Shown in pieces: positions 3,423 through 38,839 of a stretch of DNA of 45,053 nucleotides; position 1 is the first letter of the stretch, and every line of letters starts with the position of its first letter. The notes under the pieces were generated by a model. It was not told the DNA's origin. It made no database searches and saw only the letters and a program-made list of their open reading frames with translations. Where the stretch lies: positions 1 through 45,053 of the forward strand of contig CACYDP010000107.1 in the NCBI GenBank assembly GCA_902773135.1, written 5' to 3'. The stretch comes from an uncultured Ruminococcus sp. GTDB taxonomy: Bacteria; Bacillota; Clostridia; Oscillospirales; Acutalibacteraceae. The translations under genes were made by a program, and so were the position numbers.

Positions 3423-3519
3423 CATTGACATATCGTAAAACAAAATGCCTGTCAGGCAGCTTGCATATGTCAATGCCGCTGATGATAAATTGATTGTTAA
3501 CATAAAGAAAGTGGTTGTA

Positions 3520-4761
3520 ATGGCTTACAGTGAACTGATCAAAAATTTTGACAAGATACGAAGTTATGTACGGGAATTTTATATCTACGGATTTAAGAGC
3601 CGTGATGGGTACGATAAAAAAAGCGGGCGATCCTATGATGACGAAAGACGACGGTTGGAAAGCTGGTTTGAAGATTATATAGGATTCAGTAAAAAGGAAG
3701 AAAAAAAGAATTTTTATATCGCCATCGACAGCAGAAGTTCGCAGCATAATCCGCTTTATAAAGCCTGGAAGGCAAAAAGTTTTACAGATGGTGATATTAG
3801 TTTGCATTTTATTATCTTTGATATTTTATATTCCGAAAAGACAGCGTTGACACTTGGAGAAATTGCAGATAAAATTGATAATGAGTATTTATCGGAATTT
3901 GAAAATGCCAGATTTTTTGATGAATCAACCATCAGAAAAAAATTAAAGGAATATGTTTCACTTGGTTTGATTGAAATGCAAAAAGAGGGCAGAAATGTAT
4001 ATTATCGAAGAAGTAAAAAGTGTTCTCTGAATGGCAGCGATGCATTGAACTTCTATTCCGAAATTGCCCCCTGCGGTGTGGTGGGGTCTTTTTTACTTGA
4101 CAGAGAAAATAATCCGAACAGTTTTTTCCGATTCAAACATCATTATATCAACAGTGCAGTGGACAGTGAAATATTGGCAAAATCCTTTTTGGCAATGAAA
4201 CATAAAAGTACGGTCAATATTGTCAGTGTCAGCAAAAAGGGTAACCGGCAGGTTTACAGCGGATTAGTTCCGCTCAAAGTCTTTATCAGCGTTCAGAGCG
4301 GCAGACAGTATCTGATGACCTATACGGAAAAACAACGGCGTATGAGAGCGTTCCGGCTGGATTACATACTTGATATTACCGAAAAGGAAAGAGCTTATCG
4401 GTTTGATGAATTGAGAACCGTTTTAGATAAAGTGCGGGAAAAAATCTGGGGAGTCAGTGTTGACGGAAAAAGCGGCAGAACAGAAACAGTGGAGTTTACA
4501 CTGCATATCGGCAGCGGAGAACAGCATATTCTGGAAAGACTTTATCGTGAAAAACGCTGCGGCAGAATCGAAATTATCGATGAACATACAGCAAGGTTTT
4601 TTGCGGAAGTTTTTGATTCCAGTGAACTGGTTCCTTGGATCCGTACTTTCATATGCAGAATCGTTGATATTCGATTTTCCAACAAAATGCTGCAAAGGCA
4701 GTTTATCCAAGATATGAATGAAATGTATGAAATGTACGGAATAGTGAATCCAAAAAATTGA
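3520..4761 (+). CDS. WYL-domain transcriptional regulator
   Basis: About 413 residues from the ATG at 3520; an upstream ATG at 3445 would add 25 residues without a good ribosome binding site. A winged-helix-like region at about residues 85-165 (LTLGEIADKI, then a DESTIRKKLKEYVSLGLI recognition segment) precedes a WYL-type sensory domain containing YLMTYTEKQRRMRAFRLDYI. WYL proteins usually bind DNA and sense nucleic acids or nucleotides through the WYL fold; the ligand here is unknown. It overlaps the ribosome binding site of a second WYL protein, so the two are translationally coupled and may act as a heteromeric pair. Confidence 0.82.
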   Translation: MAYSELIKNFDKIRSYVREFYIYGFKSRDGYDKKSGRSYDDERRRLESWFEDYIGFSKKEEKKNFYIAIDSRSSQHNPLYKAWKAKSFTDGDISLHFIIFDILYSEKTALTLGEIADKIDNEYLSEFENARFFDESTIRKKLKEYVSLGLIEMQKEGRNVYYRRSKKCSLNGSDALNFYSEIAPCGVVGSFLLDRENNPNSFFRFKHHYINSAVDSEILAKSFLAMKHKSTVNIVSVSKKGNRQVYSGLVPLKVFISVQSGRQYLMTYTEKQRRMRAFRLDYILDITEKERAYRFDELRTVLDKVREKIWGVSVDGKSGRTETVEFTLHIGSGEQHILERLYREKRCGRIEIIDEHTARFFAEVFDSSELVPWIRTFICRIVDIRFSNKMLQRQFIQDMNEMYEMYGIVNPKN

Positions 4762-4771
4762 GGTGATGAAA

Positions 4772-5719
4772 TTGCTGTTCAGTGAATTGTACGGAATCTA
4801 TTACAGATGTGTGACAAAAATACTGGAAAAGGCCGTTAAGGATAAAGTGACGGACCAAGAAATACATGAAATTGCCTGTCGATATGGTTTTTCGGAGAGT
4901 TTTCTTACCATAGAATCATCGTTTAAAAATCAAAAATGGTCACTGATTCGACCGGACGGAACAACGCCTGTCAAAAATGCACCGGATATGCCGATAAGCC
5001 TGTTGGAAAAAATGTGGCTGAAAGCCATATTACAGGATAAGCGAATCAGACTTTTTGATATAAAAATTGACGGATTGGAAAATGTTGAGCCTTTGTTTAC
5101 ACCGGATGATTATATTGTATTTGACAGTTATTCCGATGGCGATCCGTTTGATGATGAAAAGTATATCCATCATTTTCGTTTGATTTTGTCCTGTATCAAA
5201 ACAAAATGTCCGATGAGAATCGCAGTGAAAAACAGAAAAGGTTTGCTGACGGAAACCAGTGTGATACCCGAATATTTGGAGTATTCGGAAAAGGACGATA
5301 AATTCAGGCTGATGACAAGCGGTACAAGAAATCATACAGTAATCAATCTCGGCAGGATCGTTTATTGCGGACGGCTGACACAAAATATTCCGAAAAGAAG
5401 ATCGGTTTTCAGTCCTCAGCGTCCGAAAGATATGATCAGGCTGATTTTGACAGATGAAAGAAATGCTCTGGAACGTGTAATGCTGCATTTTTCTCATTTT
5501 GAAAAACAAACCGTCAAAATGGATGACCAACATTATATGCTGACCGTGTACTACGATAAATTTGACGAAACGGAACTGCTTATTCGGGTGCTCTCATTCG
5601 GTCCTAAGATCAAAGTGATCGAACCGGAATCGTTTATTCGGCTGCTGAAAGATCGCTTGCAAAAACAAAGAGAATATCTGTTATCTGAAGCAGATGGCTT
5701 TTCTGCTTCATCGTCCTGA
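4772..5719 (+). CDS. Second WYL-domain protein, paired with the preceding regulator
   Basis: About 315 residues. I chose the TTG at 4772: GAGGTG (4760-4765) lies 6 nt before it, and the resulting N-terminus LFSELYGIYYRCV matches the usual start of this Clostridia family. The in-frame GTG (4763) and ATG (4766) overlap or abut that ribosome binding site. The family-typical LEKMWLKAILQDKRIRLF segment at about residues 70-87 precedes a WYL-like sensory region at about 115-210. There is no clear winged helix at the N-terminus, so it may depend on its upstream neighbour for DNA binding. Confidence 0.78.
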   Translation: MLFSELYGIYYRCVTKILEKAVKDKVTDQEIHEIACRYGFSESFLTIESSFKNQKWSLIRPDGTTPVKNAPDMPISLLEKMWLKAILQDKRIRLFDIKIDGLENVEPLFTPDDYIVFDSYSDGDPFDDEKYIHHFRLILSCIKTKCPMRIAVKNRKGLLTETSVIPEYLEYSEKDDKFRLMTSGTRNHTVINLGRIVYCGRLTQNIPKRRSVFSPQRPKDMIRLILTDERNALERVMLHFSHFEKQTVKMDDQHYMLTVYYDKFDETELLIRVLSFGPKIKVIEPESFIRLLKDRLQKQREYLLSEADGFSASSS

Positions 5720-5884: not shown

Positions 5885-5970
5885 GGAGATGTATCGAAGT
5901 GGTCATAACGGGCCTGACTCGAAATCAGGTAGCCCTCACGGGCTCGTGGGTTCGAATCCCACCGTCTCCG
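5885..5970 (+). tRNA. tRNA-Ser (anticodon CGA)
   Basis: An 86-nt class II tRNA. The acceptor arms GGAGATG (5885-5891) and CGTCTCC (5963-5969) pair over 7 bp with one G-U, and the discriminator is G5970. The anticodon stem CCTGA/TCAGG carries loop CTCGAAA with anticodon CGA at 5920-5922, which reads UCG. A long variable arm (AGCCC/GGGCT) and a T-loop with TTCGAAT are present. The CCA end is not encoded. The long variable arm together with CGA identifies serine. Confidence 0.97.
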
Positions 5971-5978
5971 CTCAGATG

Positions 5979-23470: not shown

Positions 23471-25144
23471 TCACTCCATTTCTGTAATCATATCGTCAAC
23501 GGTTTTTCCCGGCGGTATCATTGGCAGAACGTTTTCGTCCGGAGAAATCATACAGTCGATGACAACAGGTTCTTTTGAGGCAAATGCTTCTTTCAGTACG
23601 TTTTCCGCCTGTGAATCGTTCTGAATTCTTAAGCCTCTGACACCGAATGCTTTGGCAAGTTCGCAGAAATCGGTTTTTCTATGGGGATCTGTCTGTGAAA
23701 AACGTCTGCCGTAGAACAGTTTCTGCCATTGTCTTACCATTCCGAGTACGGTATTGTTCAGAACAACTACCACAATCGGAAGATGATAGGAACATACGGT
23801 TGCAAGTTCGTTGAGATTCATATGGAAGCTGCCGTCACCTGTGAAAAGAACGACTCTTTTTTCAGGGTGGGCAACCGCTGAGCCGATAGCTGCACCCAGA
23901 CCGTATCCCATTGTGCCGAGACCGCCTGAGGTACACCATGTACGAGGTTTTTCAAATCTGTATTTCTGGGATACCCACATCTGATGCTGACCGACATCTG
24001 TTACGATTATATCATCGTCCGAAGTCAGCTTTCTTACTTCCTCTATAATATGGTAGGGGTGGGCATATTGTTCCGAATCGGGTGTTTCGGTAACGGAAGA
24101 ATTTTTGCTCCACTCTGCAACGGTTTCGATCCATTCGGTATGTGCTGCTTTTTCTGTTTTTTGTGTCAGTCTGGAAAGGGTGTCTTTCAGATCGCCTATC
24201 ATGGGGTAATTGATTTTGACGTTTTTATTGATTTCGGCTTTGTCAATATCAAGCTGGATAATGACAGCATCTTTGCCGAACTTTTCACGATCTCCCGCTA
24301 CTCTGTCGGAAAATCTTGCACCTACTGTAATAATCAGGTCGGCATTGTCGGTTGCTTTGCCTGTTTCGTATCCGCCGTGCATACCGATCGTACCGATAAA
24401 AAGTCTGTGTGATGAAGGGAATCCGCCCAATCCCATAATGGAAGTGGCAACGGGACAGTCGATTTTTTCTGCAAATGCCAGAAGTTCTTGTTCCGCATCT
24501 GCACTGACAACACCGCCGCCCATATAGATGAGGGGACGCTGTGCCTGATTGATTGCTTGTGCAGCCGCTTCAAAATCCACCTCTTCCGCAATCAGTTCGT
24601 TAACGGGAAGTTCGGGTGTCTGAGCGGTGTACTCATACTTTGCTCCCGTAACGTCTTTCGGTATGTCGATCAATACGGGTCCTTTACGTCCGGACATTGC
24701 GATACGGAATGCTTTTCGGATTACATTGGCAAGGTCTTTGACATCTTTTACAATAAAATTATGTTTGGTGATGGGCATTGTGATGCCGCAGATGTCTACT
24801 TCCTGAAAACTGTCACGGGCAAGAAGATCGTTCGATACGTTGCCTGTAATGGCAACCATCGGAATGGAATCCATATACGCCGTTGCAATGCCTGTCACAA
24901 GGTTGGTAGCACCGGGACCGGATGTTGCGATCACGACACCGCATTTTCCTGTTGTTCTGGCATAACCGTCGGCAGCGTGGGAAGCTCCCTGCTCGTGAGA
25001 GGAAAGAATATGTGTGATTTTGTCGCTGTACTTATAAAGTGCGTCGTAAATATTAAGAACCGCACCGCCCGGATAACCAAAAACAGTGTCAACACCCTGT
25101 TCTAAAAGACACTCGGCGATGATTTCAGATCCTGTAAGCTGCAT
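23471..25144 (-). CDS. ilvB: Acetolactate synthase catalytic (large) subunit
   Basis: 557 residues. This thiamine-diphosphate enzyme condenses two pyruvates to acetolactate, or pyruvate with 2-ketobutyrate, as the first common step to valine, leucine and isoleucine. The catalytic-glutamate region is GYPGGAVLNIYDALY ... SSHEQGASHAADGYAR, and the FAD-linked and ThDP-binding GDGSFHMNLNELATVCSYHLPIVVVVLNN segments are intact. The start at 25144 has GGAGG upstream. An AUG-distal extension to 25207 would run into the T-box terminator. Expression is governed by that T-box. Confidence 0.97.
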   Translation of the reverse strand: MQLTGSEIIAECLLEQGVDTVFGYPGGAVLNIYDALYKYSDKITHILSSHEQGASHAADGYARTTGKCGVVIATSGPGATNLVTGIATAYMDSIPMVAITGNVSNDLLARDSFQEVDICGITMPITKHNFIVKDVKDLANVIRKAFRIAMSGRKGPVLIDIPKDVTGAKYEYTAQTPELPVNELIAEEVDFEAAAQAINQAQRPLIYMGGGVVSADAEQELLAFAEKIDCPVATSIMGLGGFPSSHRLFIGTIGMHGGYETGKATDNADLIITVGARFSDRVAGDREKFGKDAVIIQLDIDKAEINKNVKINYPMIGDLKDTLSRLTQKTEKAAHTEWIETVAEWSKNSSVTETPDSEQYAHPYHIIEEVRKLTSDDDIIVTDVGQHQMWVSQKYRFEKPRTWCTSGGLGTMGYGLGAAIGSAVAHPEKRVVLFTGDGSFHMNLNELATVCSYHLPIVVVVLNNTVLGMVRQWQKLFYGRRFSQTDPHRKTDFCELAKAFGVRGLRIQNDSQAENVLKEAFASKEPVVIDCMISPDENVLPMIPPGKTVDDMITEME

Positions 25145-25193
25145 AATAAAACCTCCGTAAATATAATTTTTTTGAGATAAAGATTTCTGATAA

Positions 25194-25477
25194 CAAAAAA
25201 GCCTCATCTCTTTTCACAAGAGACGAAGCATTATGAATCCTGACCTCGCTGTACCACTCTTTTCATGGTAGGGAATACCTTATATCGGATATGAAAAACA
25301 TATCGAATACTGCCAATATAACGGTCGGCATACCGTTTTTGCTTAATGACGCAAAGGTGTTCGGCAAAACTGCTCCCGGACTACTTCATATTGTTCTGCG
25401 GCTGTTTTGCACCAAACAACAGCTCTCTGAACGCAGGCGGCAATATTACTGCTCCCGATCATTGCATTTGATTTTAT
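25194..25477 (-). promoter_or_regulatory. T-box leader controlling ilvB-ilvN
   Basis: The minus strand carries the T-box AGAGTGGTACAGCGAGG (25244-25260). A 12-bp terminator stem (25201-25229) and a T-run (25194-25200) follow. Stem I elements lie upstream, including an AGTA bulge motif and the apical AGAGAGCTG ... GGTGCAAAACAGC segment. Uncharged tRNA binding would favour antitermination. The specifier loop contains GAAGTAG (25381-25387), so GUA (valine, 25382-25384) is the likeliest codon, but the register is not certain. Confidence 0.92.
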
Positions 25478-25593: not shown

Positions 25594-25641
25594 GATTCGC
25601 AAGTTTTTTTCCGAGATTTTTCCTGCCATATCGGATATGAT
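25594..25641 (+). promoter_or_regulatory. RNA-repair promoter, copy 1 (hen1-pnkp)
   Basis: GATTCGCA, two variable bases, then TTTTTTTCCG and G at 25594-25615. Exactly 20 nt later comes TATGAT (25636-25641). The same arrangement recurs at 29681-29728. There is no TTGACA-like -35 box. The shared element covers about -54 to -33, as expected for an activator site or an alternative sigma factor. The start point near 25648 would give a 35-nt leader before hen1. Confidence 0.65.
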
Positions 25642-25682: not shown

Positions 25683-27095
25683 ATGCTGATTACAATCACT
25701 ATGACAGGAAATGCAGAACAAGATGCAAGAGATCTTGGCTATCTGCTCCATAAAAATCCATACAGAGCTCAGCAGTTTGCAATGACATTCGGAAAAGCGT
25801 ATGTGTTTTATCCAACGGTGGAACGGGAAACAACAACCGCTGCATTGCTGCTGGACATCAACCCGATCGATCTGGCAAGAGGCAAAAAGGGCAGCAGCGA
25901 CGGAGGACTGTTTGATTACGTGAATGACCGACCTTATGTGAATTCATCTTTTATGAGTACGGCAATCGCCAAGGTCTTTGGGACGGCTCTGAACGGAAAA
26001 TGTGCCAAAAATCAGCAGCTTGCCGATACCAAACTGCCTCTTGAGGTATTTGTAAGTATGCTCAACTGCGGCGGAGAAAAACAATTCGTCAGAGATGTGT
26101 TTGAGCCTCTTGGCTATCAAACAAAAATTCAAACAACCCTTCTTGATGAAGAGTTTTCTGAATGGGGCGAAAGTCCGTATATCGACCTGACATTAAAAGG
26201 CTGTGTGAGATTATCGGAGCTGCTGAATCATCTGTACGTACTGCTTCCTGTTTTTGACCAGCAGAAACATTATTATACGGCAGAAGATGAAATAGAAAAA
26301 CTGGTAAAGCACGGTGAATTCTGGCTGAAAGATCACCCTGAAAAAAATCGTATTATCAGGCGGTATTTTCATCAATGCAAAAGTTACGCCAACGAAGCTA
26401 TTAAAAGAATATCCGTTGATTCTGAAACGGAACAAAATGATTTGTCCGATGAGTTTGTAAGCAAAGAAAAATCCCAAAGCAAAATACCGCTTAACAAACG
26501 GCGTTTGGAAGCAGTTAAAAATGCGGTTCTGGAATGTGGTGCAAAAAGAGTTGCCGACCTGGGCTGCGGTGACGGAAAACTGACAGCACTTTTGATGAAA
26601 GAACCGTCTGTCAGCAAAATTGCCGCATCGGATGTTTCGGTGATGATGCTGGAAAGAGCAAAACAAAGAATACACTATGATAAACTTCCGGATTATCAAA
26701 AACAGAAAATTACCTTTTTTCAGAGTTCCCTCATATACCGTGATGACAGATTTTCGGATTACGATGCGATTTGTGTGATTGAAGTAATAGAACATATCGA
26801 CAGCAACAGAACAGCGGCTTTTGAGCGAGTGATCTTTGAGTATGCAAAGCCCCGAAACGTCATACTTACCACTCCGAACAGAGAATATAATGTCAGATAT
26901 GGTCTGGACAGCGGTGAAACCGAACATCTCAGACACAGTGATCATCGGTTTGAGTGGAATAGGGAACAGTTTCAAAACTGGTGCAGCAGGGTTTGCCAAC
27001 AATTTTCTTATTCCGTGGATTTCCGAGAAATAGGCGATACGGATAAGGAATTGGGAGCCCCTACACAGATGGCTGTATTTACAAAATGTGAATAA
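25683..27095 (+). CDS. hen1: RNA 3'-terminal ribose 2'-O-methyltransferase Hen1
   Basis: 470 residues. Bacterial Hen1 methylates the 2'-OH at the 3' end of a cleaved RNA before Pnkp ligates it, so the repaired RNA resists a second cut by the same ribotoxin. An N-terminal Hen1-specific domain (about 1-240) is followed by a short linker rich in charge. The methyltransferase has a SAM motif DLGCGDGKL at about 295 and the Hen1 metal-binding pattern EVIEH at residues 367-371, with the later HSDH at 418-421. All key residues are present. GGGGG precedes the ATG at 25683. It is 17 nt upstream of pnkp and forms one operon with it. Confidence 0.96.
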   Translation: MLITITMTGNAEQDARDLGYLLHKNPYRAQQFAMTFGKAYVFYPTVERETTTAALLLDINPIDLARGKKGSSDGGLFDYVNDRPYVNSSFMSTAIAKVFGTALNGKCAKNQQLADTKLPLEVFVSMLNCGGEKQFVRDVFEPLGYQTKIQTTLLDEEFSEWGESPYIDLTLKGCVRLSELLNHLYVLLPVFDQQKHYYTAEDEIEKLVKHGEFWLKDHPEKNRIIRRYFHQCKSYANEAIKRISVDSETEQNDLSDEFVSKEKSQSKIPLNKRRLEAVKNAVLECGAKRVADLGCGDGKLTALLMKEPSVSKIAASDVSVMMLERAKQRIHYDKLPDYQKQKITFFQSSLIYRDDRFSDYDAICVIEVIEHIDSNRTAAFERVIFEYAKPRNVILTTPNREYNVRYGLDSGETEHLRHSDHRFEWNREQFQNWCSRVCQQFSYSVDFREIGDTDKELGAPTQMAVFTKCE

Positions 27096-29680: not shown

Positions 29681-29728
29681 GATTCGCAGATTTTTTTCCG
29701 TGTTATATTGGTATAGATTTGCTATGAT
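29681..29728 (+). promoter_or_regulatory. RNA-repair promoter, copy 2 (candidate small RNA)
   Basis: GATTCGCA, two bases, TTTTTTTCCG and G at 29681-29702, then exactly 20 nt to TATGAT (29723-29728). The upstream element differs from copy 1 in only three positions. The 20-nt segments between element and -10 box are not conserved, so this is not a recent duplication. The predicted start is G29735. Confidence 0.65.
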
Positions 29729-29734
29729 AAATGT

Positions 29735-29894
29735 GCGGTAAGGTTCTGTTCCGTGTTTCTGATAACACGGAGGTGCATAAGGTATTCCGTAATGTATGCC
29801 GAATCTTGATCCGCCACCATTACGCCTGTTTGTGATTCTGGCATTAAATGAAAAATCACAAGAAAACAGTACGATACACTGTTGTCTTTTTTTT
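29735..29894 (+). ncRNA. Candidate structured small RNA of the RNA-repair island
   Basis: The RNA would begin at the first base of its own closing helix: GCGG (29735-29738) with CCGC (29811-29814), and AAGGTTC (29740-29746) with GAATCTT (29801-29807). This encloses hairpins CCGTGTT/AACACGG (29751-29770) and GCATA/TATGC (29774-29799), a three-way junction. CACCA follows directly. Then come TTGTGATT/AATCACAA (29830-29861) and AACAGT/ACTGTT (29865-29883) with GTC and eight Ts to 29894. A second hairpin with T-rich tail (29915-29937) could be a backup terminator. The shape recalls Y RNAs, which accompany other bacterial repair operons, but I see no T-arm and no Ro gene here. An antisense ORF covers the region and I treat it as a shadow. 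Confidence 0.5.
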
Positions 29895-30123
29895 GTAAGA
29901 CTGTCCATCTTACACTGTATTTGGGATACAGCTCTTTTGTATATGCCGTATTTACCCGTTGGTTTTGCTGCGAAAGTCTTTCGGCTGTTTCCTGCGAATC
30001 TGCCGCACACTTTTGCCATCACTGCTGTATAGGGACTGCCTTGTTCGGAAAAGGATACCGTATCAAATTTGTATACACCAGAGAATTGGTTCTTCCGTGT
30101 AGATCAAAATGATGCTGAATTTT

Positions 30124-30152
30124 TTGACCGCCGTCTGTATACAGGGTAAATC
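30124..30152 (+). promoter_or_regulatory. Possible own promoter of the slipin-rlaP pair
   Basis: TTGACC (30124-30129) and TAAATC (30147-30152) are 17 nt apart, 41 nt before the slipin start. The rest of the gap from 29938 to 30123 shows no clear gene or signal. Confidence 0.4.
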
Positions 30153-30192
30153 GGTATATGACATCGTAATGAATACCGAGGAGGTTTGTGAT

Positions 30193-31311
30193 ATGAAGAA
30201 AGTTATTGTTAATGAAAAAGAAAGAGGATTGATGTTTGTTCACGGTAAGTTTACAAGGCTGCTTTCTCCCGGAAAATATACCCTATGGCGTAAAGATACG
30301 GAAATTGAAATTGTCAGTCTTGACAGTGCTCTCATTTCTAAAAAATGTCCTGTTGATGTTTTGCTGAAAAATAAAGAGATCGCCGGACAGACAGATGTCG
30401 TGGAGGTGAAAGAGGGCGAATATGTTTTTCGCTTTGCGAACGGCGTGTTTCAAAAAGAGTATTGTCCGGGAAAATATGCATTCTGGAATATCGGTATTCA
30501 AAATGACTTTGTGATCGCCGATATAACGAAAAAAGAAATTGCCGAGGATTTTCCCAAGCATATTTTACGTAAAATTCCGCCTGCCCTCTATCAGACCATC
30601 GTTGTACAGGAATACGAAAAGTGTGTGCTGTATTATAACGGTAAGTTTGAGAAAGTGCTCGAACCCGGTACCTATTATTTCTGGAACAATCATTGGACAT
30701 TGATAGGCTATCATAAACTGGATATGCGTCTGCTCAATATGTCGGTGAACGGTCAGGATGTTCTGACACTGGATAAAGTTTCGATACGGGTCAATCTGAC
30801 GCTGAATTACCAGATAACGGATTGCGTCAGTATCTGCAACAATGTTGAAAATTACAGAGAACAGCTGCATATTATCGCACAGATGGCATTAAGGGATTTT
30901 GTCGGCAAGTATAAACTGGATGAGATTCTTACCAGTAAAAATGAAATGTCGGAATTTGTTCTGAAAAGATGCAGGGAAAAAGAAAAGGAATTGTTTGTCG
31001 AAATTAAAGAGGCAGGTGTGAAGGATATTATTCTTCCCGGAGAAATTCGTGAAATTATGAATACGGTACTGATAGCGGAAAAGAAAGCACAGGCAAGTGT
31101 CATCACAAGACGGGAAGAGGTTGCTTCTACACGCTCTTTGTTAAATACTGCGAAATTGATGGACGAAAACAAAACGCTGTACAGGCTCAAAGAACTGGAA
31201 TATATTGAAAAGATATGTGAAAATGTTGGAAACATCAGTTTGAACGGCAGCGGAGATATATTGTCTTTGCTGACCGGTATGATGCAGAAAACAGCCGAAA
31301 GGAGCGGCTGA
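30193..31311 (+). CDS. SPFH / slipin-family protein with three N-terminal repeat motifs
   Basis: 372 residues from the ATG at 30193, behind GAGGAGG. The central part is an SPFH/band-7 domain (VNGQDVLTLDKVSIRVNLTLNYQITD, then LREFVGKYKL-like and DEILTSKNEMSEFVLKRC segments), followed by an alanine/glutamate-rich oligomerisation helix and a tail. SPFH proteins form membrane-linked scaffolds. Before the domain come three copies of a beta motif of the form G-x-F-x(3,4)-L/Y-x-PG-x-Y-x-x-W, at residues 4-32, 71-98 and 137-164. There is no clear transmembrane helix. It overlaps rlaP (TGATG) and so is coupled to a nucleotidyltransferase next to the repair operon. Confidence 0.82.
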   Translation: MKKVIVNEKERGLMFVHGKFTRLLSPGKYTLWRKDTEIEIVSLDSALISKKCPVDVLLKNKEIAGQTDVVEVKEGEYVFRFANGVFQKEYCPGKYAFWNIGIQNDFVIADITKKEIAEDFPKHILRKIPPALYQTIVVQEYEKCVLYYNGKFEKVLEPGTYYFWNNHWTLIGYHKLDMRLLNMSVNGQDVLTLDKVSIRVNLTLNYQITDCVSICNNVENYREQLHIIAQMALRDFVGKYKLDEILTSKNEMSEFVLKRCREKEKELFVEIKEAGVKDIILPGEIREIMNTVLIAEKKAQASVITRREEVASTRSLLNTAKLMDENKTLYRLKELEYIEKICENVGNISLNGSGDILSLLTGMMQKTAERSG

Positions 31312-32078
31312 TGATGAAGAAAATGATTATTGCACGGCTGCGAAAGATTGAAAATGATGAAAATATCCGAATTCTTTTTGCTGTTGAATCGGGCAGCCGT
31401 GCGTGGGGATTTGCTTCAGACAACAGTGATTATGATGTAAGGTTCATCTATATGCGTCCGATGCAGGAATATCTGAGGCTTGACAGAAAAAAAGATGTGC
31501 TGAACTTTTTGACAGATTCTTCTTTGCTCGACATCAATGGCTGGGATCTGGATAAAACACTGAAATTAATGTATCGATCCAATCCGACACTTTATGAATG
31601 GCTTTCTTCGCCGATTGTGTACATTAAGACCGATTTTGCGGATCAACTCAAAGAAATGTGCCGCCGATATTTTGTTTCAAAGAATTCGTTGTTTCACTAT
31701 ATCGGTATGGCTGAGAATAATAACAAAGAATTTCTGAGAAATAAGGAATTTGTCAGTGTGAAAAAATATTTGTACGTATTACGTCCCCTGCTTGCGTGCA
31801 AGTGGATATTGCAGTACGGAAAACCTGCACCTATGCTGTTTGCAGCATTGATGGAAAGCCAGCTGGAAGAAAGTTTGCAACCCGATGTGAAGCGGCTGCT
31901 TGACATTAAAATAAATCATCCTGAAAATATAATGATCCAGCGAGTTGAAAAAATCGACCACTATATTGAAGAAAATTTAGAACTTATCAAAAATGAAATC
32001 AGTCTGATGAGTGGCAGCTGTAAACAGGATTACAATTTATTGAATGATCTGTTGATTCATCAATTAAATGACTGGTGA
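31311..32078 (+). CDS. RlaP-type nucleotidyltransferase (RNA-repair-associated, PF10127-like)
   Basis: 255 residues. It belongs to the DNA polymerase-beta nucleotidyltransferase superfamily: the helix-strand ILFAVESGSRAWGFASDNSDYDVRFIYM carries the G-S motif and the D-x-D metal ligands (SDYDVRF). The long helical C-terminal half with SNPTLYEWLSSPIVY and KKYLYVLRPLLACKWI is typical of the RlaP family, predicted from genome context to act in RNA repair, perhaps modifying RNA ends. Its partner here is the SPFH protein, with pnkp further upstream. It starts at the ATG at 31311 overlapping the upstream stop; the next codon is also ATG. Confidence 0.82.
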   Translation: MMKKMIIARLRKIENDENIRILFAVESGSRAWGFASDNSDYDVRFIYMRPMQEYLRLDRKKDVLNFLTDSSLLDINGWDLDKTLKLMYRSNPTLYEWLSSPIVYIKTDFADQLKEMCRRYFVSKNSLFHYIGMAENNNKEFLRNKEFVSVKKYLYVLRPLLACKWILQYGKPAPMLFAALMESQLEESLQPDVKRLLDIKINHPENIMIQRVEKIDHYIEENLELIKNEISLMSGSCKQDYNLLNDLLIHQLNDW

Positions 32079-34423: not shown

Positions 34424-37400
34424 GTGAATCAGAAAGTAAAACGACTGCTTGCATGTATATTGTCCGCATTGACAATATCATCCGCATTGCCCGTGATGGC
34501 AAATGCAGCCAATACCGGTGACGCAGCTGAAACGGAAGAGGTAGAATATTTCCGTGACGGCGATGATATTCCGATTGATCTTGATGAGATAGATCAGGAC
34601 CTGGTCATCAGAAATGTCCAAGATTATTATGAATTTGAAGAACAGAACGATCAATATGCAGGTCTGGACAGAGATGCTGATACAGAAACACCTGATGAAA
34701 TGGCTCAAAGACTTTACGGTGAGTATGATAACAGTGTCAACGAAAATGCCAAATATCTGCCTGCGATCAAAAGTCAGGGCGGTATAGGTTCATGTGTAGC
34801 GTGGGCAGAGGTGTATTATCAGTATACTTATATGATCAACAAAGCAAGAGGCATCACAACAACTCCTGCTAATACGTATTCTCCTAATTTTGAATATAAT
34901 CTCATCAACTATGGTAAAGATGATGGATCAAATGCGGCTAGATGTTATAAAATACTTCAGAATCAGGGGGCTGTTACGATATCTGATGTACCGCTGATTA
35001 CCTCTAATACTGCCGATGGTTCAACATATCTGAATTGGTTTACAGAGAATGACAACTGGAAAAAATCTCAGGATAACCGAATTGAAGGATATTCATTTAT
35101 TGATGTAGATGAAGAAGGAATTGATAATGAAAAATCCCCGAAGCTGAATCTTATCAAAGATGCTTTGAATAAGGGAGAAATTCTTTCATTTTCTTCACGT
35201 GTTGCTGACTGGCTTGTAAAAGATGTTGCCGGAGGAACATCGGGAGGCAAATCTGCCGTAGGCGATAAAATTGTTTATGCAAAAGAAACTAGCGTAACAA
35301 GTCACCGTATGTCCATTGTTGGTTATAATGACAGCATATGGGTCGATATTAACGGCAACGGCAAAAAGGATCAGGGGGAACTCGGTGCTTTTAAGGTCTA
35401 TAACTCATGGGGTACAAAAACTGCATGGTATGGTACCAATACATTTGACGAATCCACTGTGGTAAATAATAATGGTGGCTGGATATGGGTGGCATACGAT
35501 GCACTGAACAAAGTGTCTTCTGTCAGCAACGCACCAACTGTTAGACAAAAAGCTTGTATACTGGAGTCTGTCGGAAGAATGCAGGTCAATGCTCAAAAAT
35601 CCCAGAAATCAGGTATTTATCTGAAATATACATTGAATACAGATAATCGCTCTCAAAATGTTATCAGCTTTACTGTAACAGATGAAAATGATAATATCAT
35701 CAAGAATAACAGCCAGGTAATGCCGTATGCAATTGGTACAGCAGGAGGGGCGTGCTCCTACAACGGTAAAGCTGCGAAGGGTGATGGTACCATGTATTAT
35801 GACCTGAATAACTGCGTGCCAAATCTTAATTCTGATAATCTTGGAAACTATACTTGGAAAATTAAGGTAAATGATTATACGAAAGACAGCAGCGATCTGA
35901 CAGTAAAAGAACTGAAGATCATCGATGAAAATACCAACAGCACCTATGATTTGCTTAAGGGAGAAACGGTTGTTCTGAACGGTCAGTCTAAAGAATATGA
36001 AGCTGCTGTTGGCAATGTTATTTCGAGAATCAAAAGCATTACTCCTGATAAAACTTCTGCAAAACTGGGTGACACCGTTAAGTTTTCTTTCACCAGCAAT
36101 ATCACCGATTCCAATGTAAGCTATCAGGGTACAGCAACACTCAACGGTTCATCGGAAAAACTTTCAGTGAATAATAAAACAATGAGCTGGACACCGTCAA
36201 AAGCAGGTACTTATACCATTAAAGTTGATGCTGTCAGCGGCGGCAAAACAATTGCTACCAAATCTATTTCTTATACCGTAGCTGAGGCAAATGTTGTAAC
36301 TATTTACTATAAAGGTTACTCCACACCGTACATTCATTATCAGACAGGCTCGGGTACATGGACAACCGCTCCCGGCAAAGCAATGGTCGCAAGCAATGAA
36401 GTAAGCGGCTATACGCACAAGTATACCATTGATCTCGGTACAGCAAGCTACGCAAATGTATGCTTCAATGACGGCAACAATAACTGGGACAGCAGAAACG
36501 GTTCCAATTACAGATTTGAAAAAGGTACTTATACTTTCTCTAATGGTTCTATCAATGCGATTTCTGTTGCAGAACAAGAACTTTCGGCATCTCTCACGAT
36601 GACTAACAACGGCAATGTTCCTGTGAACCATCCTGTTACGATCACAGCATCAGCAACAGGCGGTACTGCTCCGTATCAGTATGAATTCTCACATTTCAGA
36701 TACGGTGCTACCACACAGCTCCAATCATCAAGCAATTCCGTAAGTTTTACCCCCACACTTGACGGTTACTATACCGTAACGGTGAAGGTAACAGATGCAA
36801 AGGGCAGAACTTTCAGCAAGAGCGGCAATCTGACAGTGACAAAAATAACGGTTTATTCTTTCACATCAAGTGCGGACACCATTAAGACCGGCGAACAGGT
36901 AACATTCTCCGCAAAAGTGAATACCAGCGTGATTCCTTTAACTTATCAATATACCGTATCAGGCAATGGTGTGAATCAGACACTGACCACCAATTCTGAT
37001 AACACAGCAAGCTGGAAACCCACTAAAGAAGGTACTTATACTGTTAATGCAGATATACGTTACAACAGCTCAACTGTTGCAACCAAGTCGATGTCTTATA
37101 CAGTAGAAAAGGGTGACGTTGTAACAGGCAATGAAACAACCATTTATTATAAAGGTTATGCAGCACCGTACATTCACTATCAGACAGGTACAGGTGCGTG
37201 GACAGCAGCTCCCGGTAAGGCAATGACTGCTACCAACGAAGTAAGCGGTTATACACACAAGTATACCATCGACCTCGGAACAGCAAGCTATGCAAACGTA
37301 TGCTTCAATGACGGCAACAACAGCTGGGACAGCAATAACGGTTCCAATTACAGATTTGAAAAAGGTACTTATACCTATTCTAACGGTAAGATCACAGCTT

Positions 37401-38839
37401 ACACAGTAACTCCGCAGGGTCTTTCGGCAACTGTCAGCATCAAAGAGGGCAGCAATGTGCCGCTCAACACATTGACTACCATTAATGCTTCCGCAGCAGG
37501 CGGCACTGCTCCGTATCAGTATCGTTATACTTATACAAAGGACGGCAGTGAAACAGTCATCAGCAATTATTCTTCCAACACATCTGCCACATTCAGACCG
37601 TCGGCAGCAGGCACATACACCGTAAAAGTAACAGTCAAAGATTCCACCGGCAACACAGCAGCAAAGACTGCAAGTCTGACAGCATCTTCTGTAACAATCA
37701 AGAGCCTGAGTGCTAATAAAACATCTGTCAAAGAGAACGAACAGGTAACATTCTTTGCTTCACTTTCTACTAACAGTGTTCCTGTTACTTACAGATATAC
37801 TGTATCCGGTAACGGCGTAAATCAGACACTGACAACCAACTCCGGTAATACAGCAAGTTGGAAACCGACCAAAGAAGGTACGTATACCGTAACGTTGGTG
37901 ATTCTTTATAACGGTTCTTCAATTGCTTCCAAATCCATTTCTTACAAAGTAGAAAAAGGTTCGGTCGTAACAGCTAACCAGACAACCATCTACTACAAAG
38001 GTTATGCAACACCGTACATTCATTATCAGGTAGGTACAGGTGAATGGACAGCAGTTCCGGGCAAGGCAATGACAGCAACCAATGAAATCAGCGGCTACAC
38101 ACACAAGTATACTATTGACCTCGGTACAGCAAGCTATGTAAATGTATGCTTCAATAACGGCAGCAACAGTTGGGACAGCAGAAACGGTTCTAATTACAGA
38201 TTTGAAAAGGGTACTTACACCTATGCAAACGGTACAATGATCAAAATTTCTGCCGATGCAGATAAAGATGCAGATATACAGAATGCAGAATTGACAAACC
38301 TTTCCACTGTCAGTGCTTCATCTGTTACAATCGGCAAATCTGTTACCGTCAATGCAGGTGCTATCGGCGGCTCGGGTGACTACACTTATGCTGTATTCTA
38401 CAAGAAGACAACCGACAAGAGTTGGGCTTCTAAACAGAGCTACAAAGCTAACACAACTGTTACTTTCAAACCTGCCAAGGCTGTTGCTTACAACATACTT
38501 GTTAAGGTAAAGGACAGTGACGGAACTATTGTAAAGAAAACATTTACATTGAAAGTAAATGAAGTGCTGAAAAACACTACTTCCATTTCTGCCACATCGA
38601 TTGCTCTCGGCAAAACCGTTAAGGTTACTGCCAATGCATCGGGCGGTTCGGGTGACTATACCTATGCAGTATATTATAAGAAAGCAACCGATACCAAATG
38701 GGCTGCTAAGCAGAGCTACAATACAAATGCATCTGTATCGATCAAGCCCGCAAAGGCTGTTAAATATAATATCCGTGTAAAGGTAAAGGACAGCAGTGGA
38801 ACGATTTCTACTAAGGACTTTACTGTTACCGTCAAATAA
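34424..38839 (+). CDS. Secreted C1-type cysteine protease with three CBM25-like starch-binding modules
   Basis: 1471 residues from a GTG with AGGAGG 7 nt upstream. The signal peptide ends near VMANA. The papain-like domain (about 105-370) has the catalytic Cys at about 124 (GGIGSCVAWA), His at about 294 (TSHRMSIVGYND) and Asn at about 327 (VYNSWGT), after a proregion-like acidic stretch. Three modules at about 626-716, 905-995 and 1187-1277 repeat YYKGY-x(2)-PYIHYQ, W-T-x(2)-PGKAM, and C-F-N-x-G-x(2)-W-D-S, the hallmark of CBM25 starch-binding domains. Ig/PKD-like domains alternate with them. Two final ~85-residue repeats (GGSGDYTYAV-YKK) end the protein. It probably degrades proteins at the starch granule. 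No dockerin is visible. Confidence 0.88.
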   Translation: MNQKVKRLLACILSALTISSALPVMANAANTGDAAETEEVEYFRDGDDIPIDLDEIDQDLVIRNVQDYYEFEEQNDQYAGLDRDADTETPDEMAQRLYGEYDNSVNENAKYLPAIKSQGGIGSCVAWAEVYYQYTYMINKARGITTTPANTYSPNFEYNLINYGKDDGSNAARCYKILQNQGAVTISDVPLITSNTADGSTYLNWFTENDNWKKSQDNRIEGYSFIDVDEEGIDNEKSPKLNLIKDALNKGEILSFSSRVADWLVKDVAGGTSGGKSAVGDKIVYAKETSVTSHRMSIVGYNDSIWVDINGNGKKDQGELGAFKVYNSWGTKTAWYGTNTFDESTVVNNNGGWIWVAYDALNKVSSVSNAPTVRQKACILESVGRMQVNAQKSQKSGIYLKYTLNTDNRSQNVISFTVTDENDNIIKNNSQVMPYAIGTAGGACSYNGKAAKGDGTMYYDLNNCVPNLNSDNLGNYTWKIKVNDYTKDSSDLTVKELKIIDENTNSTYDLLKGETVVLNGQSKEYEAAVGNVISRIKSITPDKTSAKLGDTVKFSFTSNITDSNVSYQGTATLNGSSEKLSVNNKTMSWTPSKAGTYTIKVDAVSGGKTIATKSISYTVAEANVVTIYYKGYSTPYIHYQTGSGTWTTAPGKAMVASNEVSGYTHKYTIDLGTASYANVCFNDGNNNWDSRNGSNYRFEKGTYTFSNGSINAISVAEQELSASLTMTNNGNVPVNHPVTITASATGGTAPYQYEFSHFRYGATTQLQSSSNSVSFTPTLDGYYTVTVKVTDAKGRTFSKSGNLTVTKITVYSFTSSADTIKTGEQVTFSAKVNTSVIPLTYQYTVSGNGVNQTLTTNSDNTASWKPTKEGTYTVNADIRYNSSTVATKSMSYTVEKGDVVTGNETTIYYKGYAAPYIHYQTGTGAWTAAPGKAMTATNEVSGYTHKYTIDLGTASYANVCFNDGNNSWDSNNGSNYRFEKGTYTYSNGKITAYTVTPQGLSATVSIKEGSNVPLNTLTTINASAAGGTAPYQYRYTYTKDGSETVISNYSSNTSATFRPSAAGTYTVKVTVKDSTGNTAAKTASLTASSVTIKSLSANKTSVKENEQVTFFASLSTNSVPVTYRYTVSGNGVNQTLTTNSGNTASWKPTKEGTYTVTLVILYNGSSIASKSISYKVEKGSVVTANQTTIYYKGYATPYIHYQVGTGEWTAVPGKAMTATNEISGYTHKYTIDLGTASYVNVCFNNGSNSWDSRNGSNYRFEKGTYTYANGTMIKISADADKDADIQNAELTNLSTVSASSVTIGKSVTVNAGAIGGSGDYTYAVFYKKTTDKSWASKQSYKANTTVTFKPAKAVAYNILVKVKDSDGTIVKKTFTLKVNEVLKNTTSISATSIALGKTVKVTANASGGSGDYTYAVYYKKATDTKWAAKQSYNTNASVSIKPAKAVKYNIRVKVKDSSGTISTKDFTVTVK

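What the first reader, a model, noticed from the sequence alone, without database searches (positions are those of the whole stretch)
29735..29937. Candidate structured RNA inside the RNA-repair island
The second shared promoter has no gene within 450 nt. Its predicted start point falls on the first base of an 11-bp bulged closing helix that encloses two hairpins in a three-way junction, followed by CACCA, another hairpin and a terminator-like hairpin with eight Ts. Y RNAs accompany the Ro/RtcB repair operons of other bacteria. This could be an analogous RNA for the Pnkp/Hen1 pathway: a guide, scaffold, decoy or sensor substrate. I regard this as the best candidate for something undescribed in the window.
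Basis: partly seen in the sequence, partly recalled or inferred. Interest (0 to 1): 0.82.

Follow-up and report, generated by a model that had tools for sequence, protein, structure and literature searches.

The report
tRNA-mimic leader RNA of RNA-repair operons
Some bacteria related to Ruminococcus carry a previously uncatalogued, strongly conserved folded RNA in front of the slipin gene of their RNA-repair operons, and in most relatives part of it imitates a rearranged transfer RNA, so repair of broken RNA may involve an RNA partner that works without the usual Ro protein.

Summary
The structured RNA is real, but longer than described and tied to a different partner. The three-way junction at 29735-29814 (domain A) is conserved. 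A domain C model found one copy in each of 17 of 394 genomes of the order. In the 16 loci not used for training, 34 of 39 domain C pairs and 22 of 29 domain A pairs show compensatory changes. Nothing reaches an Rfam 15 threshold. All 17 lie before a slipin gene; 22 of 23 slipin loci have the RNA (20 by the domain C model, 2 by eye). Most relatives carry a tRNA T-arm between the domains, the best case a full permuted tRNA-like module matching a model of local Y RNAs; it is degenerate in this window. No Ro (TROVE) match in the 20 RNA-bearing genomes tested. The promoter element, 20 nt before the -10, also precedes hen1; a WYL regulator pair is the likely activator. Best reading: a Ro-independent, Y-RNA-like RNA of the slipin repair system; function is inferred.

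The parts
29683..29702 (+). Upstream promoter element TTCGCANNTTTTTTTCCNTG (likely activator site)
   Evidence: in the window before this RNA and before hen1; exact in 15 of 16 and 1 mismatch in 1 of 16 homologous order loci
29723..29728 (+). -10 hexamer TATGAT, 20 nt after the element
   Evidence: hexamer at +20 matches TATAAT at 4 or more of 6 in 33 of 35 loci with the element
29735..29814 (+). Domain A: three-way junction (P1 29735-29746 with 29801-29814; P2 29750-29771; P3 29772-29800)
   Evidence: model R1 matches once in each of 20 of 20 loci (4 of them training sequences; E 2.1e-7 to 0.099 in the other 16)
29815..30024 (+). Middle region; in most relatives carries a permuted tRNA-like module, degenerate here
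   Evidence: T-arm in 23 of 25 loci but not in the window or G454; model R3 gives no match here
29865..29894 (+).
   Evidence: not reported; U8 only in the window of 25 loci
29894..29914 (+). Hairpin of 7 pairs with 7-nt loop CUGUCCA, roughly where relatives have the capped acceptor-like hairpin
   Evidence: sequence; G454 has a hairpin with loop CUGUCAA; by eye
29915..29931 (+). Hairpin CTGTAT-TTGGG-ATACAG, same sequence in G023
   Evidence: by eye
30025..30144 (+).
30180..30184 (+). Shine-Dalgarno sequence of slipin
   Evidence: by eye
30193..31311 (+). slipin (SPFH/Band 7)
31311..32078 (+). rlaP, RNA-repair nucleotidyltransferase family PF10127
25596..25615 (+). Same promoter element before hen1 (1 mismatch), -10 at 25636-25641
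25683..27095 (+). hen1
   Evidence: PF12623
27104..29674 (+). pnkp with ligase domain
   Evidence: PF16542
3445..4761 (+). WYL1 regulator, candidate activator of the shared promoter (similarity from 3523)
   Evidence: 51% identical to the WYL protein next to the RNA in G111, which matches Pfam WYL over its cut-off
4763..5719 (+). WYL2 (WCX-type) regulator
   Evidence: 46% identical to the second regulator of G111, whose WCX match (22.0 bits) is below Pfam's cut-off of 23.9

Best explanation
A structured noncoding RNA of about 410 nt (29735 to about 30144) is the 5' part of the slipin-rlaP transcript. A promoter shared with hen1-pnkp makes it, probably under the WYL regulator pair encoded at 3445-5719. 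It has two conserved domains: a three-way junction (A) and a bulged rod (C). Between them most relatives carry a circularly permuted tRNA-like module (T-arm, capped acceptor, D-arm) of the Y-RNA kind; in this window that module has decayed. Mechanism proposed: A and C are protein-binding platforms of the slipin repair complex, and the tRNA-like module docks tRNA-recognising enzymes, so that the RNA works like a Y RNA scaffold without Ro, either on the mRNA leader or after processing. Shown by computation: conserved structure, strand, linkage to slipin, shared promoter geometry, tRNA-like module in relatives. Inferred: transcription, activator identity, binding partners, scaffold role.
For: Covariation in the 16 loci not used to build the models: domain C 86.9% of cells paired, 34 of 39 pairs with compensatory change, slid controls 34-50%; domain A 89.4%, 22 of 29, slid 36-49%. 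RNAalifold found domain C unprompted. Domain C in 17 of 394 order genomes, once each; domain A model hits all 20 loci once each and nothing else at E up to 10. A slipin match begins 28-125 nt after domain C in 14 of the 16 other genomes and about 690 nt after it, behind an extra ORF, in G314 and G326 (ORF). Of 23 slipin loci, 20 have domain C by model; G309 and G050 have the RNA by eye (G050 also by R1 at E 0.019 and by R3); G350 lacks it. T-arm in 23 of 25 RNA loci against 1.2 expected in mononucleotide shuffles and 5 on the antisense strand; with all five pairs 21 against 0.17 and 0. The Y-RNA module model matches G050 at E 1.2e-14 and G377 at 7.3e-8. Same element before hen1, before this RNA and before DUF2828 genes. 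WYL1 and/or WYL2 beside slipin in 18 of 22 other order loci, both in 17.
Against: No transcript data. The tRNA-like module is missing in the window and G454, so it is not needed for whatever A and C do. Most of the 20 R3 matches rest chiefly on the T-arm (18 of them at 14-24 bits, E 6e-6 to 0.02), and R3 also has matches elsewhere, at 18.1 bits on a true tRNA and at 16.3 bits outside any RNA locus, so the weakest are not significant alone. A place just before slipin also suits a cis-acting leader. G005, G433 and G442 have the element but no WYL1 hit, and G061, G377 and G309 have it with no WYL gene in the stretch fetched, which weakens the activator assignment. G350 keeps promoter and slipin without the RNA. 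Slipins are not known to me to bind RNA (recalled).
Confidence: 0.45

Rival explanations
1. Cis-acting leader: domains A and C sense damaged tRNA, a ligase or another ligand and control expression of the slipin operon, like a T-box or an autoregulatory leader; the tRNA-like module mimics the substrate of the encoded enzymes.
For: Slipin begins 28-125 nt after domain C in 14 of 16 other genomes and no conserved U-run separates them; the RNA starts just behind the promoter in the loci with the element; one copy per genome.
Against: No conserved pairing with the Shine-Dalgarno was seen (looked for by eye only); in G301, G314 and G326 a further ORF lies between RNA and slipin; G350 has lost the RNA but kept promoter and operon.
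Confidence: 0.3
2. Decoy or inhibitor: the tRNA-like module competes with tRNA for a ribotoxin or nuclease while damage is repaired, as suggested for YrlA in Salmonella.
For: tRNA T-arm with capped acceptor in most relatives; operon genes belong to RNA-repair families; a decoy role for YrlA is proposed in PMC7790460 (passages read).
Against: I saw no conserved anticodon-like arm (by eye), and the module is lost in the window and G454 while A and C stay conserved.
Confidence: 0.12
3. One reading: a discrete RNA of 160-200 nt ended by the U8 terminator and working with Pnkp/Hen1.
For: Promoter and junction are real; a weak hairpin and U8 exist in the window.
Against: Terminator not conserved; the conserved structure goes on to 30144; the RNA follows slipin, not pnkp.
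Confidence: 0.06
4. A Y RNA proper with an undetected Ro-like protein.
For: Permuted tRNA-like module of the Y-RNA kind; G111 has a DUF2828/DUF7788 gene just before the RNA.
Against: TROVE: no match in own genome or G438, G023, G454, 0 of 16 order genomes; DUF2828: none in the same 4, 1 of 16. TROVE-DUF2828 profile similarity is weak (probability 25%).
Confidence: 0.07

Closest known systems
Bacterial Y RNA YrlA
   Same: tRNA-like module in circularly permuted order (T-arm, capped acceptor, D-arm) in the best relatives; home in RNA-repair operons (for YrlA: PMC7790460, PMC8394870, PMC11472068, passages read)
   Different: About 410 nt against 90-150; two extra conserved domains; no Ro/Rsr match found; follows slipin; module degenerate in this window
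Tandem Y RNAs at TROVE loci of the same genus
   Same: T-arm, capped acceptor, D-arm order; model R3 built from 13 of them matches G050 and G377
   Different: Arrays of short RNAs; no domain A or C in the loci searched; no promoter element with fewer than 4 mismatches in the part that was shown
Tandem RNAs before DUF2828 genes (G005, G433, G442, G432, G024)
   Same: Same promoter element and spacing; T-arm-like hairpin in some
   Different: No match to R1 or R2; other repeat units
T-box leader
   Same: tRNA-related 5' leader with ornate structure
   Different: No Rfam match at this place; the window's only T-box is at 25216-25471 on the other strand
tmRNA
   Same: T-arm
   Different: Rfam tmRNA scores only 14.1 of 47 bits, on the T-arm of the G417 homologue

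Membership tests
Y RNA (YrlA) | Permuted tRNA-like domain with T, acceptor and D arms | tested here: inconclusive
   Met in G050 and G377 (R3), weaker in 18 further loci; no R3 match in the RNA of the window, G454, G055, G172, G309, nor at G350 (20 of 26 sources with a match). G055 and G172 do have a T-arm with capped hairpin
Y RNA (YrlA) | Ro/Rsr (TROVE) partner gene in the genome | tested here: not met
   Own genome and G438, G023, G454: no match; 0 of 16 order genomes; G050, G377, G180, G301, G309 not tested; several genomes are incomplete
Y RNA (YrlA) | Basal stem of 5' and 3' ends that binds Ro | not testable with these tools
   Domains A and C are separate closed structures; 3' end unknown; binding needs experiment
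Y RNA (YrlA) | Length of 90-150 nt (PMC8394870) | tested here: not met
   Conserved structure spans 29735-30144; processing to shorter pieces cannot be excluded
Any Rfam 15 family | Score over the gathering threshold | tested here: not met
   Window RNA; 16 homologous loci: 0 matches; low-threshold scans of two loci gave nothing near a cut-off
T-box riboswitch | Match to RF00230 | tested here: not met
Rtc-type RNA-repair operon | RtcB ligase gene beside the RNA and slipin | tested here: inconclusive
   RtcB beside slipin in 14 of 22 other order loci; no RtcB match in the window, which has rlaP and hen1-pnkp instead

The most novel reading that the evidence does not exclude
A new class of RNA: a Ro-independent, tRNA-mimicking RNA that is the constant RNA subunit of a membrane-linked (slipin) RNA-repair particle, kept while the repair enzymes themselves are exchanged (RtcB against Pnkp/Hen1 with RlaP) and co-induced with them by WYL regulators.
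Probability: 0.35. Interest if true: 0.9.

Novelty: new variant of a known kind. Interest (0 to 1): 0.8.

Why it matters
What slipin does in RNA repair, and why tRNA-like RNAs sit in repair operons, is open as far as I know. This RNA gives a defined, deletable molecule, present in 14 genera of the order in the sample searched, that separates the tRNA-mimic RNA from Ro and ties it to slipin. It also exposes a regulon: one promoter element with fixed geometry before hen1-pnkp, before the slipin RNA and before DUF2828 genes (possibly Ro-like), with a WYL pair as candidate activator, so the inducing signal becomes testable.

Tried and rejected
Fold energy as evidence: undecided, because the - strand folds better relative to shuffles.

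Rfam at low threshold: chance-level matches only (Thr_leader 17.5 of 55 bits in the window; ssnA 18.7 of 37.3 bits and T-arm fragments of tmRNA in a homologue).

DUF2828 as a Ro homologue: weak profile match over 98 columns (probability 25%, E 7.5e-4); left open.

Y RNAs of TROVE loci as direct homologues: domains A and C gave no match in those searched (L098-L104).

Domain A with four sequences alone was only moderately supported: one of five shuffle measures was not unusual (further pair types, 209 of 500 shuffles as high; the others 1 to 11 of 500). The wider set settled it.

Pairing just before and after domain C (such as GCAATTACTC with GAGTAATTGC in G044): seen by eye in several loci, weak or absent in the window; not counted, so not claimed.

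Literature: nine searches. None of the listings that I saw names an RNA before slipin. The library lacks the key papers: PMC4201824, PMC5062991, PMC6047535 and 10.1093/nar/gkw722 are not held, so 'not in print' is not established.

Alignment A4 holds one antisense row (L045 minus strand, 25.8 bits); one search repeats the count without it: 36 of 39 pairs, 87.6% of cells.

Full report
Setting. The window is a contig of a genome whose genus has 64 searched genomes, own included. One named locus with the same pnkp-slipin interval (L014) is labelled uncultured Ruminococcus sp.. Around the finding lie hen1 (25683), pnkp (27104), slipin (30193) and rlaP (31311). The WYL pair that I link to the promoter lies at 3445-5719 of the same window.

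The observation. The promoter and the three-way junction exist. The best single-sequence folds of four homologues (window, G454, G438, G023) are all three-way junctions. The interval continues: an alignment of the pnkp-slipin interval shows a second conserved block close to slipin, which folds as a rod. In these four sequences alone 20 of 39 rod pairs show changes on both sides, with 90.3% of cells paired against 33-48% in slid controls and no shuffle as high on any measure. For the junction it is 8 of 29 and 88.6% against 31-55%; there one of five shuffle measures is not unusual.

Independent test. Models built from those four sequences were then searched elsewhere. The rod model hit 17 of 394 genomes of the order (own plus 16, 14 genera), once per genome, with E from 4.6e-20 to 6.7e-7 for the others. 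The junction model hit each of 20 loci once, at the expected place, and nothing else at E up to 10; in the 16 loci not used for training E runs from 2.1e-7 to 0.099, with 8 of 16 below 0.001. Counting only those 16 loci, 86.9% (rod) and 89.4% (junction) of cells pair, with compensatory change in 34 of 39 and 22 of 29 pairs; slid controls give 34-50% and 36-49%. These alignments are fitted to the model, which favours it; the slid controls and the genome-wide specificity are the safeguard. One weak antisense match (L045, 25.8 bits) appeared too.

Linkage. All 16 other genomes carry a slipin homologue downstream (14, G061 and G216): it begins 28-125 nt after domain C in 14 and about 690 nt after it in G314 and G326. 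Conversely slipin (E up to 1e-40) occurs in 23 of 394 genomes. Seventeen have the rod by genome scan and three more by scanning their loci (G301, G180, G377). G050 and G309 show the RNA by eye, with R1 and R3 matches for G050 only. G350 has the promoter but an ORF in place of the RNA. In G301, G314 and G326 that kind of ORF lies between RNA and slipin. RtcB lies beside slipin in 14 of these 22 other loci, and a WYL1 and/or WYL2 gene upstream in 18, both in 17 (several contigs end nearby). In the genus, pnkp is over the cut-off in 13 of 64 genomes, the junction motif in 4 of 64, three of them among the 13; the fourth, G023, has a hen1-like start behind the element on another contig (by eye) and no pnkp match, and its RNA contig begins inside this interval. 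The RNA therefore follows slipin rather than one ligase.

The promoter. The element with up to one mismatch gives 19 sites in 15 of 64 genomes; the reversed control pattern gives 1. By position and sequence, 6 lie before hen1, 4 before this RNA and 4 before DUF2828 genes with tandem RNAs; the other 5 (G022, G424, G425, G426, G012) lie inside open frames of 294-653 residues and look like chance. In 35 loci with an element examined (24 RNA loci and 11 others chosen from those above and G024; a 36th, G050, has none), the hexamer 20 nt later matches TATAAT at 4 or more of 6 in 33, and is the best hexamer nearby in 30. For the WYL assignment: WYL1 is in 12 of 64 genus genomes, including all four with the RNA, and G050, which lacks the element, shows no WYL gene in its locus. 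Against it: G005, G433 and G442 have the element and no WYL1 match, and G061, G377 and G309 have it with no WYL gene in the stretch fetched. WYL domains are proposed to bind nucleotides or nucleic-acid fragments (PMC4012209, passages read).

The tRNA-like module. A T-arm (7-nt TTCRANY loop, at least 4 of 5 stem pairs) is present in 23 of 25 RNA loci, against 1.2 expected in mononucleotide shuffles and 5 on the antisense strand; with five pairs 21 against 0.17 and 0. In 14 of the 16 order loci a T-arm with five pairs is followed within 3 nt by a hairpin of 5 or more pairs (a lenient rule, no control run) and then, by eye, a D-loop-like GG-containing stretch. In G050 the order T-arm, capped acceptor, TA, D-arm is complete. 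Y RNAs at TROVE loci of this genus have that order; a model from 13 of them matches G050 at 49.1 bits and G377 at 29.7, and 18 further loci at 14-24 bits at the like place, mostly through the T-arm. Six of 26 sources have no match there (window, G454, G055, G172, G309, G350). Five matches lie elsewhere: one on the window's true tRNA-Ser (18.1 bits) and four of 6.7 to 16.3 bits outside the RNAs. YrlA is described as a tRNA-like domain on a Ro-binding stem (PMC8394870, passages read) and as circularly permuted against tRNA (PMC11472068, passages read).

No Ro found. TROVE has no match in the four RNA-bearing genus genomes nor in 16 of 16 order genomes; DUF2828 has none in the four and one in 16, next to the RNA (G111). 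Several of these genomes are incomplete, and five further RNA-bearing genomes were not tested.

Known or not. Rfam 15 has no match over a gathering score in the window RNA or in 16 homologous loci. It also misses the local Y RNAs, so Rfam silence alone says little about kinship with Y RNAs. The literature that I could search (nine searches, listings only, plus passages of five papers) shows no description, but the key Y-RNA and RNA-repair reviews are not held.

Judgement. That this is a conserved structured RNA of about 410 nt linked to slipin I hold at about 0.97. That it works as a Ro-independent, Y-RNA-like partner of the slipin repair system I hold at 0.45, a cis-acting leader at 0.3. In the window itself the tRNA-like part has decayed while both outer domains keep compensatory changes, so the outer domains probably carry the constant function.

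Noticed in passing
L076-L087, L098-L104 (TROVE loci of the genus): Tandem arrays of Y RNAs with permuted tRNA modules before TROVE genes; none reaches an Rfam 15 gathering score in the loci tested.
   Followed up: partly
L048, L053, L056, L114, L118: DUF2828 genes preceded by tandem RNA units with an ACAGCA motif and, in some, a T-arm-like hairpin, under the same promoter element as hen1 and the slipin RNA.
   Followed up: partly
L195 (G350), L144, L147, L196: An ORF of about 210 aa, not searched against protein families, lies between RNA and slipin in three genomes and replaces the RNA in G350.
   Followed up: partly
L143, L155, L193, L194: Two T-loop hairpins in tandem inside the RNA of G417, G216, G377 and G180.
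   Followed up: no
window 25216-25471, - strand: T-box leader (105.9 bits) before the thiamine-pyrophosphate enzyme gene 23471-25207, probably acetolactate synthase.
   Followed up: no
window 5885-5971: tRNA-Ser (CGA) closely behind the WYL pair.
   Followed up: no
window 34424-38839: Large protein with three family 25 carbohydrate-binding stretches and PKD domains downstream of the repair genes.
   Followed up: no
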